From a virus: a stretch of DNA of 46,344 bases. Within the stretch, counting starts at the first letter, position 1; every line of letters starts with the position of its first letter. Under the pieces are notes generated by a model. The model saw only the letters and a program-made list of their open reading frames with translations, did not search any database and was not told where the DNA came from. Positions 42-38,929 of the stretch are shown here, piece after piece. The stretch is from positions 1 through 46,344 of the IMG/VR virus record IMGVR_UViG_3300025131_000078; one strand, 5' to 3'. The position numbers were made by a program, and so were the translations under genes.

Positions 42-1385
42 ATGAAATATAAAGAAACAGAAAATTTAAAAAGGTTACAGAAATTTGTAGATGAGATGAA
101 AGCCACTTCATCACTTAATGAGAAAAAGGTTATTATTGATTCAGTAAAGGATGATGAGTTCATTACAGAGGCGTTAAATTATACATATGACCCTTATAAG
201 AAGTATTATGTAACTAGTAAGACTTGTAAAAAGATGAGTCATTTAGCCGATGATGTACTTACTTCTATAGTAGGTGATAATCCAAATGATTCTTTCTTTA
301 GTTTATTAGATCATTTAAATGAAAGGTTGTTCACCGGTCATGATTCAATTACCAATGTTGTTTCATATATAAATGCCTATCCGGAATTTGAAGATTTGTT
401 TTATTCTATAATTGATAGAAATTTAGAAATTAGAGCTTCTGAATCGGTTATTAATAAAGTTATTCCAAATTTGATTCCAACCTTTGATGTTGCTTTAGCA
501 ACTAAGTATGAACCTAAATTTTGTGATTTTGAAAATGAAGTTTGGATGGCATCTAGAAAATTAGATGGCGTAAGATGTATTATCAGAAAAGAAGGAGATA
601 GTATTACTGCTTATTCTAGACAAGGAAATGAGTTTACGACCTTGCAAAAAGTATTGGATGATGTTTTATATATCAGCGATGAAATAAGTTGGCATAATGA
701 TTTTGTATTAGACGGAGAGATTTGTTTAATGGATAAAAATGGTAATGAAGATTTCCAAGGTATAATGAAACAAATCAAAAGAAAAGATCATACTATTGAA
801 AATCCAAGATATATTATATTTGATTGTATAACAATTGAAGAGTTTGATTCGAAAGAAGGGTATATTTCATTAACAGAAAGATTACAAAGATTACCGGAAT
901 TAGATGGAATATTTGGCGATGTAAAAACATTAAGTATATTAGATCAGCATCTAATTGAAGATGAACGACAATTATTAAGTATGATTGCAGATGCTGAATA
1001 CCAAGGATATGAAGGAGTTATGTTGAGAAAAGAAACTTGTTATGAAGGTAAGAGATCTAAAAACTTATTAAAGTGTAAAAAGTTTCATGATAATGAATAT
1101 AAAGTATTAGATGTTGAATTTGATGACCATAGAGTTATCCGAAATGGTGCAGAGGTAGTAATGCCAATGTTAGCCAATGTTATTATTGAACATAAAGGAT
1201 ATAAAGTTTCAGTTGGGTCCGGATGGAGTCAAGACCAAAGAATTCGTTACCAAGCCAATCCGGAAGAGTTAATTGGTAAAACAATTACCGTTCAATATTT
1301 TGAAGAAACAAAAAATCAGCAAGGAGAATTGAGTTTAAGGTTTCCAACCGTAAAACATGTTTATGAAAATGGCAGAAGTGTTTAA
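42..1385 (+). CDS. ATP-dependent DNA ligase (T4 gp30-like)
   Basis: It seals nicks in duplex DNA during replication and recombination through an enzyme-AMP intermediate. The 447-residue protein has the ordered nucleotidyltransferase motifs: motif I KLDGVR with the AMP-accepting lysine at K173, motif III near VLDGEI, motif IV EGVMLRK, and motif V LLKCKKF. The C-terminal ~100 residues look like the OB-fold domain (GKTITVQYFEE, then LRFP close to the end). Its length is close to T4 gp30 (487 aa). The N-terminal ~150 residues are mostly helical and acidic, as in phage ligases. The ATG at 42 is the first in frame and lies just after an A-rich leader. It is the leftmost complete gene, followed by two small ORFs. 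The family call is secure; DNA rather than RNA ligase is favoured by the OB domain. Confidence 0.93.
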   Translation: MKYKETENLKRLQKFVDEMKATSSLNEKKVIIDSVKDDEFITEALNYTYDPYKKYYVTSKTCKKMSHLADDVLTSIVGDNPNDSFFSLLDHLNERLFTGHDSITNVVSYINAYPEFEDLFYSIIDRNLEIRASESVINKVIPNLIPTFDVALATKYEPKFCDFENEVWMASRKLDGVRCIIRKEGDSITAYSRQGNEFTTLQKVLDDVLYISDEISWHNDFVLDGEICLMDKNGNEDFQGIMKQIKRKDHTIENPRYIIFDCITIEEFDSKEGYISLTERLQRLPELDGIFGDVKTLSILDQHLIEDERQLLSMIADAEYQGYEGVMLRKETCYEGKRSKNLLKCKKFHDNEYKVLDVEFDDHRVIRNGAEVVMPMLANVIIEHKGYKVSVGSGWSQDQRIRYQANPEELIGKTITVQYFEETKNQQGELSLRFPTVKHVYENGRSV

Positions 1386-34829: not shown

Positions 34830-35318
34830 ATGAGCATAAATACAGGTACATTTAGAGTTACAGCAGCATCAGGCCAAGATATTGGATTTTATGTTGAACA
34901 TGACGGGACTACTGAACAACTAACAATAGGCACCGGCGTAACAGCGTTAGTACCATATAGTAATATAGATTACAACTATGGGGGTTGTTGGGATGCATCC
35001 ACTGAAAGATTTACGGCACCAATTGACGGCATATATCAATTTAACGTAAACTGCATGATGCAATCATATGCAATAGCAGCTAGTGATAGATTTGATAGTG
35101 GCTTGAAAATAAACGGATCTTATATCAAATATACATTACGAGAATTTGCAGCAATGACAGCATTTCCATCATGGGCTTATTCAGTCATGTATCCAATGAC
35201 TGCAGGCCAATATATAGAAAGTTATATAGTCAATCAAACTACTTTAACTAGATATACATACGCCGGTACTGGATATACAAATTTTTCTGGCTTCTTATTG
35301 CAATCCGGTATATGGTAA
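34830..35318 (+). CDS. C1q/TNF-like fibre tip protein
   Basis: The 162-residue protein forms a single C1q-like jelly roll. It has the hallmark GGCWDASTERFTAPIDGIYQFNVN (residues ~50-73), aromatic strands, and the C-terminal YTNFSGFLLQSG strand. Such domains trimerise and sit at the end of phage fibres or act as adhesins. It starts 11 bases after the giant fibre gene with AAAAGGA upstream. Whether it is a separate receptor-binding subunit or a fibre-associated decoration is open. Confidence 0.8.
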   Translation: MSINTGTFRVTAASGQDIGFYVEHDGTTEQLTIGTGVTALVPYSNIDYNYGGCWDASTERFTAPIDGIYQFNVNCMMQSYAIAASDRFDSGLKINGSYIKYTLREFAAMTAFPSWAYSVMYPMTAGQYIESYIVNQTTLTRYTYAGTGYTNFSGFLLQSGIW

Positions 35319-35763: not shown

Positions 35764-38358
35764 ATGGATAATTTAGGAAATTGGTTAGCGGAACAGCTCA
35801 TAACAGAGCAACAAATAAAAACGGTTCTAGTAGTATACCCGGGCAGGTTCCAACCTATGGGGCAACATCATGCCGAAGTATATAAAAAATTAGCAAGTAA
35901 GTTTGGAAAATCAAATACATTTGTAGTAACATCTGATAAGGTTTCATTGCCTAAATCTCCTTTAAATTTTAAAGAGAAACAAATGGTAATGAAAAAACAT
36001 GGCATTACAAATGTTGTTCAAGTTAAGAATCCATACCAGGCTCAAGAGTTAACTAAAAATTATGACCCGGAAACAACTGCAATGTTATTTGCAGTAGGTA
36101 AAAAAGATATGCAAGAAGATCCGAGATTTAGGGTAGGATTAAAGAAAAATGGTGAACCATCATATTTCCAACATTACGACAAAAACCAAAATAATTTACA
36201 GCCATTTTCAAAACACGGCTATTTAGTTGTAGCACCTCATGTATCTTTAAACGTTCCAGGATTTGGAGAAATGTCCGGAACAACATTAAGACAAGCATTG
36301 GCAACAGCAGATGCACAAACATTTAAAGATATTATGGGATTTTATGACCCAAAAATTTATAATATGTTACAAACTAAATTTATGAGTTTACGTAATGAAG
36401 ACATCGAAAATTTTTTAGTTAAATTTAATATAATATCTTTATTAAAAGAATCATCATCTAATACCACTAACAGTAATACTGATGTTGATGATGGACCTAG
36501 GTATTTTTATGGAAGTCAAAAAGCATATGAGATTGATTCGAAGAGGATGGCGGAATCATTAGGATTTTCAGTGTTAAATTATATAATGGATGGAGGAATG
36601 TCTGAAATGAATAATACAACATTTCCAGATGGCCCTCCAATGGGAGTATCATATTTTCCTGTCGGCGCTGCCGGAGCAACGATGTCTGGTACAGATTATA
36701 CCGGTAATATAAAAGGAAAGCCAGCATATAAAAAATGGAGTGATTATATTAGTAATGTAGCTACTCAAGTAGGATATAAGTTCTTAAATTTCCTAGGAGC
36801 GGAAGATTCGATTGCAAGTACAAAAGATGCAAACATCTCTAAACCTGAATCATTAGTACAAGAACAGATTCAAAATAAAGAATGGTGGTCATCGTTAATG
36901 GAAGATATAACAATTCCTATTAATATTGGTGATACTGTTTTAATGGGCAAATTTAAAAATAAAAAAGTTGTTGTTAAATCAATTACTAAAAACGAAAAGG
37001 GTGATTATTTAATAAACGGACGCCCGGCAATGAAGTTTAGATTAATACCTCAAGTCGAAGAAACCATTAAAAAGGTGGATGGCAAATATGTTGTATATCC
37101 TAAAAAAGGCGGAAAGCGTTTAGGCACTCATGCAAGTCGTACAAAAGCTGAAAAACAATTACGTGCTATTCATGCTAATGAAAATATAATTAAAGAAGCC
37201 AAGGCCAATACTCATTTAACTCATTTAGAAGAGTTAATATTAACTCAAGGCCAAGATGGCTATAAACAAGCACGTGATGTCTTAATCGAACTTATAAAAA
37301 ATCTTAAAGGCAATTCTAATGCAAAAGTTAATACTACTGTTAAATGGGACGGCGCCCCGGCTCTGTTCGCAGGCATCAACCCAGAAAATGGAAAATTCTT
37401 TGTAGGAACAAAGTCCGTATTTAATAAAGTACCTTTAATTAACTACACAGATGAGGATATCGACCGTAACCATGGTGGAGCTCCTGGCTTAGCAGTTAAG
37501 CTTAAAAAAGCTCTTAAAGTGTTACCATCACTAGGAATACGAAATATTCTGCAAGGCGATTTTATGTTTGACGATTCTACATTAAAACTTAAAACAATAG
37601 ATGGCATTAAACATTATGTATTTAAACCAAATGCAATTACATATGCGGTAGAGGTAGATTCAGATCTAGGACGTCAATTAGAAAAGGCAGAACTTGGCAT
37701 TGTATTTCATACCGGATATAAAAGTTTAGATAGCGGCGCAGAATTTGGAGCTAATGTATCCGGATTAAACCGACCACCAGCAGTTTGGTTTGATGATGCA
37801 TTTTTTAAAGATACAACAGGTACTGTATTATTAACTAATGACGAGGCTAAGCAAGTAGCTGGTTTAATTAAAAAGGCCGATAGTATAAAAGTAGATTATG
37901 ATAAGTTACCGTCTGCATTATTGAATATATACATTAATAAAGAAATTAGAAGTAATGAATTTTTAAATAATCCTAAACAATCATATGATAAGTTTATTAC
38001 TTGGGTACAAAGTAGAATAGATACAAAAGTTGACAAATTGAAATCTGAAAGAGGCAAACAAAAAGCAATTATTGTTGGCCAAGAACAAATGGCAAAAATT
38101 AATGATGCCGAAAAAGATATTTTAAATGTATTTAATTTAAGTAAATTATTAGCAGAAGCAAAATTAGTATTTGTTAGAAAATATAACAATGCTGTTTATA
38201 ATACAAAACATTTTAAAGACGACGGTAAAGGCGGATTAGCTGTTACAGCACCAGAAGGATATGTAGCTATCGATAGATTTGGAAATGGCGTTAAATTAGT
38301 AGATAGATTAGAATTCAGTAGAGCTAATTTTGCAATGGACAAAGGTTTTACAAAATAA
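35764..38358 (+). CDS. fusion: NMN adenylyltransferase-like + ligase-like (DUF6267-like) protein
   Basis: The protein has 864 residues in several modules. Residues 1-17 form a short leader ending LITEQQ. Residues ~20-220 form an HIGH-superfamily nucleotidyltransferase: VVYPGRFQPMGQHH (27-36, with the first His of H-x-G-H missing), a VTSDK strand, and SGTTLRQAL (171-179). A linker region of unknown fold lies at ~240-370. A small beta domain (GDTVLMGKFKNKKVVVKSI, from ~388) and a basic repeat-like helix (KKGGKRLGTHASRTKAEKQL, ~445-465) follow. From ~480 onward it has ligase/nucleotidyltransferase features: KWDGAPALF with candidate lysine K527, then QGDFMFDD at 597. I associate this last part with DUF6267 of T4-like phages. 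The reaction is unknown; AMP or NMN transfer is a reasonable guess. It lies between fibre genes and head-type genes. Confidence 0.75.
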   Translation: MDNLGNWLAEQLITEQQIKTVLVVYPGRFQPMGQHHAEVYKKLASKFGKSNTFVVTSDKVSLPKSPLNFKEKQMVMKKHGITNVVQVKNPYQAQELTKNYDPETTAMLFAVGKKDMQEDPRFRVGLKKNGEPSYFQHYDKNQNNLQPFSKHGYLVVAPHVSLNVPGFGEMSGTTLRQALATADAQTFKDIMGFYDPKIYNMLQTKFMSLRNEDIENFLVKFNIISLLKESSSNTTNSNTDVDDGPRYFYGSQKAYEIDSKRMAESLGFSVLNYIMDGGMSEMNNTTFPDGPPMGVSYFPVGAAGATMSGTDYTGNIKGKPAYKKWSDYISNVATQVGYKFLNFLGAEDSIASTKDANISKPESLVQEQIQNKEWWSSLMEDITIPINIGDTVLMGKFKNKKVVVKSITKNEKGDYLINGRPAMKFRLIPQVEETIKKVDGKYVVYPKKGGKRLGTHASRTKAEKQLRAIHANENIIKEAKANTHLTHLEELILTQGQDGYKQARDVLIELIKNLKGNSNAKVNTTVKWDGAPALFAGINPENGKFFVGTKSVFNKVPLINYTDEDIDRNHGGAPGLAVKLKKALKVLPSLGIRNILQGDFMFDDSTLKLKTIDGIKHYVFKPNAITYAVEVDSDLGRQLEKAELGIVFHTGYKSLDSGAEFGANVSGLNRPPAVWFDDAFFKDTTGTVLLTNDEAKQVAGLIKKADSIKVDYDKLPSALLNIYINKEIRSNEFLNNPKQSYDKFITWVQSRIDTKVDKLKSERGKQKAIIVGQEQMAKINDAEKDILNVFNLSKLLAEAKLVFVRKYNNAVYNTKHFKDDGKGGLAVTAPEGYVAIDRFGNGVKLVDRLEFSRANFAMDKGFTK

Positions 38359-38404: not shown

Positions 38405-38929
38405 ATGAATGAAGCACAACTAAGAACGATAATTCGTAAACAAATACGAAGAACGTTAAAAGAAGACGGCCCCAGTTTAGGAGCAGCGGGAGCAGCATTT
38501 AAACGCGGCTTAGGAAAAGTAAAATCAAGCAGGGTATCTAGATTTTCAAAAGCACAGAAGATTGCATCAATAGCACCGTTTCTTGATAAATTTGATCTTT
38601 CAGTATCAGATCTTCCATTAATTAAAAAGGCATTAGTTCATAATGCAAAAGCCAATGCAGATGCAGCAGCCGAAACAGAAGCACCGACTGAAGAAAATCA
38701 TACAGCCGGCGTAGATGATGGCGATGCTGGAGCATCATTACAAGAAGCAGGAGCACTTGATTCAAAAGGCGCAAAGTTAGAAAAGACACAAGCCTTTCAA
38801 ATGTTGCAAAAAGCATTAGCGTCAAAACCAGCTAATCAACAAGCTGAGTTTGTTATGGATTTAATTGGTAAATTAGGAATGGATGATAGTGCTAAGCGTA
38901 AGCTAAAGATGAAAGTAAAACAGATATAA
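38405..38929 (+). CDS. Ala-rich putative internal head or core protein
   Basis: The 174-residue protein begins with a basic amphipathic helix (QLRTIIRKQIRRTLKEDG). Its L18-K-E20 fits the L-x-E cleavage rule of T4-type prohead protease leaders. The remainder is Ala/Lys-rich with an acidic middle (ETEAPTEENHTAGVDDGDAG) and a helical C-terminus, a composition common in internal head and scaffold proteins. It has its own late-type element. It is one base from the next gene. Function is inferred from composition and leader only. Confidence 0.6.
   Translation: MNEAQLRTIIRKQIRRTLKEDGPSLGAAGAAFKRGLGKVKSSRVSRFSKAQKIASIAPFLDKFDLSVSDLPLIKKALVHNAKANADAAAETEAPTEENHTAGVDDGDAGASLQEAGALDSKGAKLEKTQAFQMLQKALASKPANQQAEFVMDLIGKLGMDDSAKRKLKMKVKQI

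What the first reader, a model, noticed from the sequence alone, without database searches (positions are those of the whole stretch)
35764..38358. Nucleotidyltransferase-ligase fusion with a head-targeting-like leader: a possible injected nucleotide-modifying enzyme
The chain joins an HIGH-type NMN adenylyltransferase-like domain (GRFQPMGQHH, SGTTLRQAL), small beta and basic modules, and a ligase-like domain with KWDGAP (K527). Its first 17 residues end in I-T-E, like the cleavable leader of T4 packaged proteins. T4 packages Alt, an NAD-using enzyme that modifies host RNA polymerase. An adenylyl/NMN-transferring enzyme coupled to a nucleic-acid or protein AMP-transfer domain would be a different way to modify host RNA, NAD pools or proteins at infection. 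The HxGH motif is altered, so the chemistry may differ from NMNAT.
Basis: partly seen in the sequence, partly recalled or inferred. Interest (0 to 1): 0.75.

Follow-up and report, generated by a model that had tools for sequence, protein, structure and literature searches.

The report
Phage-head enzyme polyprotein: adenylyltransferase plus RNA-ligase-like
A T4-like marine phage encodes one long protein joining a cofactor-making (NMNAT-like) enzyme to an RNA-ligase-like enzyme, with a packaging tag and apparent head-protease cut sites at every join, suggesting that the phage carries both enzymes in its head and injects them at infection.

Summary
ORF 35764-38358 (864 aa) has an N-terminal HIGH-superfamily adenylyltransferase whose predicted fold is closest to NadD/PPAT, and a C-terminal DUF6267 domain. 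DUF6267 shows every motif of the covalent nucleotidyltransferase (ligase/capping) superfamily: I K527-x-D-G, Ia, III, IIIa, IV E831-G-x-V, V K844. These are invariant in 150 non-redundant relatives. Its confident model's first hits outside its own family are RNA ligases.

An [LI]-x-E site, the form cut by the T4 prohead protease, lies before the first enzyme in 40/40 leader-bearing relatives. The same site recurs at each inner domain border (36/36, 26/26, 39/39). Stand-alone homologues carry T4-style capsid-targeting leaders, and four cyanophage NTases found in virions by others all do. The chain is therefore probably a packaged polyprotein cut into separate enzymes, not one coupled enzyme.

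Function is inferred: an injected nucleotide/RNA-repair kit (NAD-type synthesis plus strand sealing; some relatives add a kinase). Packaging of the ligase and both activities are untested. NMNAT-like virion enzymes are already published; the ligase assignment, the fusion in both orders and the border cut sites I did not find described.

The parts
35764..35808 (+). capsid-targeting-like leader MDNLGNWLAEQLITE, predicted cut after E15 (I-T-E|Q); E10 also fits
   Evidence: T4 ipI/ipII/ipIII/Alt leaders read
35809..36429 (+). HIGH-superfamily adenylyltransferase domain (GRFQPMGQHH at 27-36, SGTTLR at 171-176), NadD/PPAT-like predicted fold
36442..36450 (+). border site L-K-E (E229) between NTase and middle domain
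   Evidence: 36/36 relatives with this border carry [LI]xE-type sites
36451..36894 (+). middle domain (VDDGPRYFYG...FLNFLGAEDS), no Pfam family, low-confidence model
36895..36903 (+). border site L-M-E|D (E380) before the beta module
   Evidence: 26/26 relatives
36904..37185 (+). small beta module (NIGDTVLMGKFKNK...) and basic module (KKGGKRLGTHASRTKAEKQLRAI); matches phrog_3684
   Evidence: a separate gene (gp128) carries the GD.V.GGKFKNK module in pelagiphage HTVC008M
37189..37197 (+). border site I-K-E|A (E478) directly before the ligase-like domain
   Evidence: 22/22 fused relatives have the E exactly 5 residues before HLxH; 39/39 counting both ligase types
37198..38355 (+). DUF6267 (PF19782): RNA-ligase-like covalent nucleotidyltransferase domain; HLxH 484-487, K527 (motif I), K550 (Ia), GD 598-599 (III), PN..Y 622-627 (IIIa), EGxV 831-834 (IV), KLVDR 844-848 (V)

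Best explanation
This is a virion cargo polyprotein of a T4-like phage. The N-terminal leader brings the chain into the prohead core. The gp21-type (S77) prohead protease removes the leader after E15 and cuts at the domain borders (E229, E380, E478), leaving a NadD/NMNAT-like adenylyltransferase, two small accessory modules and an RNA-ligase-superfamily enzyme (DUF6267) loose in the head. These enter the host with the DNA. The most likely work is immediate nucleotide and RNA upkeep: the ligase uses K527-AMP to reseal broken RNA (for example tRNAs cut by host defence nucleases), while the adenylyltransferase makes a nucleotide cofactor, probably NAD. Directly shown: the domains, motifs, fold resemblance, border sites, gene linkage and leaders. 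Inferred: packaging of this protein, cleavage, injection, catalytic activity, substrate and purpose.
For: Ligase side: invariant motifs I-V in 150 non-redundant relatives, with motif IV-V spacing identical to T4 Rnl1 (13 residues). AF2 pLDDT 90.5, pTM 0.87. The viral fold search gives an RNA ligase as the first hit named as something outside the family (E 1.6e-3, prob 0.99), followed by many RNA ligases; 26 of the top 50 PDB hits are ligases or capping enzymes. NTase side: NadD E 5e-6, PPAT, FAD synthetase. Linkage: 251 of 308 DUF6267 loci have an NTase fused (111) or next door on the same strand (140). Fusion occurs in both orders and with several NTase types, and the same NTase is also fused to a second ligase-like family. 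Packaging: [LI]xE at leader and borders 40/40, 36/36, 26/26, 39/39; S77 protease gene in 8/12 long relative contigs; gp23 with LVTE|A or LVSE|A. Stand-alone NTases (89/117) and DUF6267 (120/194) have leader sites such as MFKSFSDYIVE|E, like T4 MKTYQEFIAE|A. Virion-detected NTases in four cyanophages all have such leaders. A Zeta-toxin/PNK-like kinase with a leader lies nearby in 41 loci.
Against: No PDB fold hit reaches E < 0.001 for DUF6267 (best 0.3) and profile-sequence comparison with T4 ligases is weak. The first His of HxGH is lost (GxHH). In S-SZBM1 the leaderless DUF6267 was not among 30 virion proteins although the NTase was, so the ligase need not be packaged in every clade. The window ends before any prohead protease gene. 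Border sites were chosen by eye before being counted, and relatives share descent.
Confidence: 0.55

Rival explanations
1. A coupled NAD cycle: DUF6267 is an NAD+-dependent nucleic-acid ligase that releases NMN, and the NMNAT-like domain re-adenylates that NMN to NAD+, which would explain why the two are so often fused or adjacent.
For: Persistent pairing with NadD-like enzymes. The NTase fold search gives adenylyl-, not cytidylyltransferases. An invariant H-L-x-H-x-E/D motif sits just before the ligase core, where NAD+ ligases carry their NMN-binding domain (own knowledge). NAD+ ligases are among the weak PDB hits.
Against: The NAD+-ligase domain Ia was not found. RNA ligases and capping enzymes rank above NAD+ ligases in the viral and PDB fold searches. 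Border cut sites would separate the two enzymes.
Confidence: 0.15
2. Not a virion protein: a cytoplasmic fused enzyme whose N-terminus and linkers merely happen to be rich in L/I and E.
For: No proteomics exists for this phage. Cyanophage homologues lie in the replication gene block. Shuffled linkers also contain such a site about half the time over wide windows.
Against: 100% presence at four borders, with P3 almost only L/I and P1 always E while P2 takes many residues. Homologous leader-bearing NTases were detected in four virions.
Confidence: 0.15
3. The NTase makes a nucleotide-sugar or other cofactor (as proposed for cyanophage HIGH NTases in PMC7824862), and DUF6267 caps or AMPylates a target instead of ligating RNA.
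For: HIGH-superfamily NTases of cyanophages were assigned to NDP-sugar pathways in that paper. Capping guanylyltransferase 3s24 is among the best PDB hits.
Against: No sugar-pathway gene was recognised beside the loci whose neighbours were read, whereas kinase and ligase-like partners recur.
Confidence: 0.12
4. Dead enzymes reused as head-filling internal proteins.
For: HxGH altered to GxHH throughout the window's NTase subfamily.
Against: All ligase motifs and the NTase SGTxxR motif are invariant or nearly so, which a structural filler would not need.
Confidence: 0.05

Closest known systems
T4-GC190 'cytidyltransferase'/NMNAT-like virion protein of cyanophages (S-SM1, S-SZBM1, S-CREM2, S-SCSM1)
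   Same: HIGH-superfamily NTase with a T4-style leader, next to DUF6267 (T4-GC71) in many phages and detected in virions by others
   Different: Those NTases that were read keep a T/H-x-G-H-type motif (GRFNPPTVGH, GRFNPPHAGH, GRYNPPHKGH); the window's subfamily has GRFQPMGxHH and is fused to the ligase-like domain
PF19782 DUF6267 / phrog_455 / T4-GC71
   Same: The window's residues 482-860 are a full-length member; phrog_455 itself is DUF6267 followed by NTase
   Different: Domain order is reversed in the window, with two extra modules; the family had no assigned function, here placed in the covalent nucleotidyltransferase superfamily
T4 RNA ligases Rnl1/Rnl2
   Same: Motifs I, Ia, III, IIIa, IV, V in order; motif IV-V stretch EGYVA...K closely resembles Rnl1
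   Different: About 230 residues between motifs III and IV (68 in Rnl1), an HLxH motif before the core, apparent head packaging; no significant sequence match
T4 Alt and internal proteins (IPI-IPIII)
   Same: N-terminal [LI]-x-E-type capsid-targeting leader; packaged proteins injected with DNA
   Different: Alt is an ADP-ribosyltransferase, reported to be trimmed at its two ends (PMC9026906); here internal sites at each domain border would yield several separate proteins
Phage RNA-repair cassettes (Pnkp + Rnl1; RNA ligase + RlaP Pol-beta NTase, PMC7824862)
   Same: Ligase-like enzyme linked with a kinase in some relatives and a Pol-beta-like stretch in one (L345)
   Different: Partner is a HIGH-superfamily adenylyltransferase, and the set carries head-targeting leaders

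Membership tests
Covalent nucleotidyltransferase (ligase/capping) superfamily | Motif I K-x-[DN]-G with nucleophile lysine | tested here: met
   K527-W-D529-G530, K/D/G 150/150 non-redundant; partly by construction, independent
Covalent nucleotidyltransferase (ligase/capping) superfamily | Motifs Ia, III, IIIa, IV, V in order on beta strands | tested here: met
   F546/K550, QGD597-599, PN..Y622-627, EGxV831-834, KxVDR844-848 invariant or nearly so; all on or beside predicted strands
Covalent nucleotidyltransferase (ligase/capping) superfamily | Significant fold match to a solved member | tested here: inconclusive
   PDB best E 0.3 though 26/50 top hits are members; viral library RNA ligase E 1.6e-3, prob 0.99
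Covalent nucleotidyltransferase (ligase/capping) superfamily | Lysyl-NMP intermediate and strand sealing | not testable with these tools
   needs biochemistry
NMNAT/NadD (HIGH superfamily) | Rossmann-like adenylyltransferase fold | tested here: met
   NadD 6kh2 E 5.2e-6 prob 1.00; PPAT and FAD synthetase also
NMNAT/NadD (HIGH superfamily) | [HT]-x-G-H motif | tested here: not met
   GRFQPMGxHH in all 52 aligned; first His/Thr replaced by Gly, second His kept
NMNAT/NadD (HIGH superfamily) | S-x-T-x-x-R motif | tested here: met
   SGTTLR 171-176; G172 and R176 invariant, S171 and T173 at least 90% in 52
NMNAT/NadD (HIGH superfamily) | NMN or NaMN adenylylation | not testable with these tools
   needs biochemistry
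PF19782 DUF6267 | Full-length profile match above cut-off | tested here: met
   325 bits against cut-off 27, positions 1-376/376
T4-type capsid-targeted (CTS) internal proteins | Short N-terminal leader ending [LI]-x-E | tested here: met
   ITE15; 40/40 relatives; T4 leaders read; IPIII processing depends on residues 8 and 10 (PMC9026906)
T4-type capsid-targeted (CTS) internal proteins | Same genome encodes the S77 prohead protease | tested here: inconclusive
   Window ends before that region; protease found in 8 of 12 relative contigs
T4-type capsid-targeted (CTS) internal proteins | Protein found, cut, in virions | not testable with these tools
   Only homologous stand-alone NTases have been detected, by others

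The most novel reading that the evidence does not exclude
Phages package multi-enzyme polyproteins that the capsid's own protease cuts into separate injected enzymes, with interchangeable modules (adenylyltransferase, two ligase-like families, and in relatives candidate kinase, Pol-beta-like and zincin-like modules): a modular, head-delivered RNA/NAD repair kit that acts at time zero against host nuclease or NADase defences.
Probability: 0.35. Interest if true: 0.85.

Novelty: new variant of a known kind. Interest (0 to 1): 0.62.

Why it matters
DUF6267 (T4-GC71) and its NTase partner (T4-GC190) are widespread in marine T4-like phages, yet DUF6267 has no published function that I found. Placing it in the ligase/capping superfamily gives a direct biochemical test. 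The border protease sites predict something I did not find described: a cargo polyprotein matured inside the phage head into several injected enzymes. If true, it shows how T4-like phages load and diversify enzymes that act before any phage gene is expressed.

Tried and rejected
Sequence search of the PDB with the whole protein or with the DUF6267 profile: nothing meaningful. hhalign of DUF6267 against T4 Rnl1, Rnl2, gp30 and the second ligase-like family: weak, though the alignments with the second family and Rnl1 fall on the expected motifs. Cytidylyltransferase as the NTase's chemistry: not favoured, since no CTP enzyme is among the 50 best fold hits. 'AMG for teichoic acid' (glycerol-3-P cytidylyltransferase), an annotation cited for S-SZBM1, not followed for the same reason. 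Structure of the middle region (230-460): model too poor to use. Pfam on the middle region and on the inserts of L012 and L345: no match above cut-off. Literature on DUF6267 or on NMNAT-RNA ligase fusions: nothing relevant. Searches failed on wrong coordinates or terms.

Full report
Observation. The ORF at 35764-38358 encodes 864 aa. It sits in a T4-like structural block: large terminase and gp20-type portal lie downstream, a long tail-fibre-like protein upstream. The record is a 46-kb virus contig.

The C-terminal domain. Residues 482-860 are a full-length PF19782 DUF6267 (E 8e-97). In 150 non-redundant relatives the following are invariant or nearly so: HxxH 484/487, KxDG 527-530, F546/K550, QGD 597-599, PN..Y 622-627, H649-T650, N725, K800, EGxV 831-834 and KxVDR 844-848. 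This is the order of motifs I, Ia, III, IIIa, IV and V of covalent nucleotidyltransferases. T4 Rnl1 has K99, E227 and K240 at the matching places, and its motif IV-V stretch, EGYVAVMKDGSHFKIK, closely resembles EGYVAIDRFGNGVKLV. The predicted model is confident (pLDDT 90.5, pTM 0.87), with these motifs on or beside predicted strands. Against solved structures no single hit is significant (best E 0.3), but 26 of the top 50 are ligases or capping enzymes. In the viral library the first hit named as something outside the family is an RNA ligase (E 1.6e-3, prob 0.99), followed by many RNA ligases. Some relatives were fetched with patterns that contain KWDGAP, so invariance of K527 is partly by construction. 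One search used other patterns and gave the same result, and motifs IIIa, IV and V were never used for fetching.

The N-terminal domain. The model of residues 1-220 is good (blocks mostly 73-96 pLDDT). It matches NadD (E 5e-6, prob 1.00), PPAT and FAD synthetase. GRFQPMGxHH is invariant in 52 sequences, so the first residue of [HT]xGH is replaced while the last His and SGTxxR remain. I therefore call it an NMNAT-like HIGH-superfamily adenylyltransferase and do not file it as an NMNAT.

Association. DUF6267 and a HIGH NTase are fused, or adjacent on the same strand, in 251 of 308 loci (loci are not independent). The order varies. In the window's group the NTase comes first. In L017, L019, L023, L026 and L037 the same NTase type follows DUF6267. 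In others the partner has GAFKPPHLGH, GGFKPPHKGH, GSMKPPTIGH or GRFNPPTTGH. In L290, L302, L308, L315 and L330 the NTase is joined to a different ligase-like domain (EKTDGQN ... ARNK ... SEGLVF ... YKLTG), and L338 has that pair in reverse order. In pelagiphage HTVC008M the pieces are separate genes: gp127 DUF6267, gp128 beta module, gp129 Zeta-toxin/PNK-like kinase, gp130 NTase. S-PM2 p141/p142 look like one DUF6267-NTase fusion split by a frameshift; a 591-aa fused S-PM2 entry exists.

Head targeting. T4 internal proteins begin MKTYQEFIAE|A and Alt begins MELITELFDE|D; the first ten residues of IPIII suffice for packaging, and processing depends on residues 8 and 10 (PMC9026906). Every leader-bearing NTase-first relative has [LI]-x-E 11-14 residues before GRFQP (40/40). 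Stand-alone DUF6267 proteins often start like MKSFRQFLGE|EKNTHMEHLE (120/194 have such a site), and stand-alone NTases like MFKSFSDYIVE|ETKEVVFTFGRFNPP (89/117). Published proteomics detected the NTase in virions of S-SM1 (PMC3037559), S-CREM2 (PMC10665884), S-SZBM1 (PMC9146016) and S-SCSM1 (PMC9602691). I read all four N-termini: MKKFSAFLNE|A, MKNFSSFLTE|A, MRFRQFIIE|A and MKSFLQFLKE|A. In S-SZBM1 the neighbouring DUF6267 has no leader and is not among the proteins that paper reports: a useful contrast, and a warning that the ligase is not packaged everywhere.

Borders. The same site form recurs at each domain border: NTase|middle 36/36, middle|beta 26/26, before the ligase 39/39, against 0.9-1.7% per residue inside the domains. 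In fused NTase-DUF6267 proteins the E lies exactly 5 residues before HLxH in 22/22 although the upstream sequence varies. Shuffling the linkers gives a site in about 55-60% of wide windows and never in all. P3 is almost only L or I, P1 always E, P2 many residues. The S77 prohead protease gene is present in 8 of 12 long contigs carrying this NTase or DUF6267, and two major capsid proteins read from that group have LVTE|A or LVSE|A at the place where T4 gp23 has LTE|A. The windows were chosen after reading some sequences and the proteins share descent, so this is strong but not proof.

Mechanism. Shown: domains, motifs, fold resemblance, linkage, leaders, border sites. Inferred: packaging of this chain, cutting, injection and chemistry. 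The most economical account is a cargo polyprotein giving an adenylyltransferase and an RNA-ligase-like enzyme at time zero. Nearby kinases (41 loci) and a Pol-beta-like stretch in L345 (by eye only) fit the RNA-repair sets described for phages (PMC7824862). An NAD+-dependent ligase recycling its NMN through the NTase is an attractive rival but has no direct support.

Known versus new. NMNAT-like proteins in cyanophage virions, and the idea that they are injected, are published (PMC9602691). I found no paper that names DUF6267 or describes an NMNAT-RNA ligase fusion. The ligase assignment, the two-way fusion and the border sites appear new within what I could search.

Noticed in passing
L290, L302, L308, L315, L330, L338 (C- or N-terminal 400 aa): A second ligase-like family (GGAxGHMxHPFDD...EKTDGQN...ARNK...SEGLVF...YKLTG) with no Pfam match above cut-off, sharing an HMxH motif before motif I, fused to the same NTase in both orders.
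   Followed up: partly
L012, L014, L299, between NTase and DUF6267: In these relatives the inter-domain insert is different; in L012 it contains HELEH (zincin-like HExxH). Pfam gives only a sub-threshold eCIS_core match.
   Followed up: partly
L345:5625-6329: A Pol-beta-type nucleotidyltransferase-like stretch (GKKDSSGDLDLAVDE) between the NTase and a divergent DUF6267 (KWDGSP); no Pfam match.
   Followed up: partly
L082:9619-10281 and 41 loci: Zeta-toxin/PNK-like kinase near DUF6267 with a leader-like start ending [LI]xE before G[LV]YD, possibly a third packaged enzyme.
   Followed up: partly
L371 and L372 (S-SCSM1 genes 89-93): The virion-detected NMNAT lies in a run of genes annotated as virion proteins without known function, as if the whole cluster were cargo; DUF6267 was not found in genes 89 and 90.
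   Followed up: no
window 38405-38929: The next gene starts MNEAQLRTIIRKQIRRTLKE|DG, another leader-like N-terminus; it has no Pfam or PHROG match.
   Followed up: no
window 42-1385: ATP-dependent DNA ligase (phrog_114, E 5e-78), so the phage also has an ordinary ligase.
   Followed up: no
window 34830-35318: C1q-domain protein (PF00386, E 7.6e-8) directly after the 1906-aa tail-fibre-like protein.
   Followed up: no
C-termini of DUF6267-first proteins (L023, L025, L029, L034, L074, L079): Conserved short C-terminal helix-like tail ([VI][ND]EVxxLI...GI..), of unknown role.
   Followed up: no
S-PM2 NC_006820 genes p141/p142 (L083): Annotated as two genes, but they look like one DUF6267-NTase fusion broken by a frameshift in that record.
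   Followed up: yes
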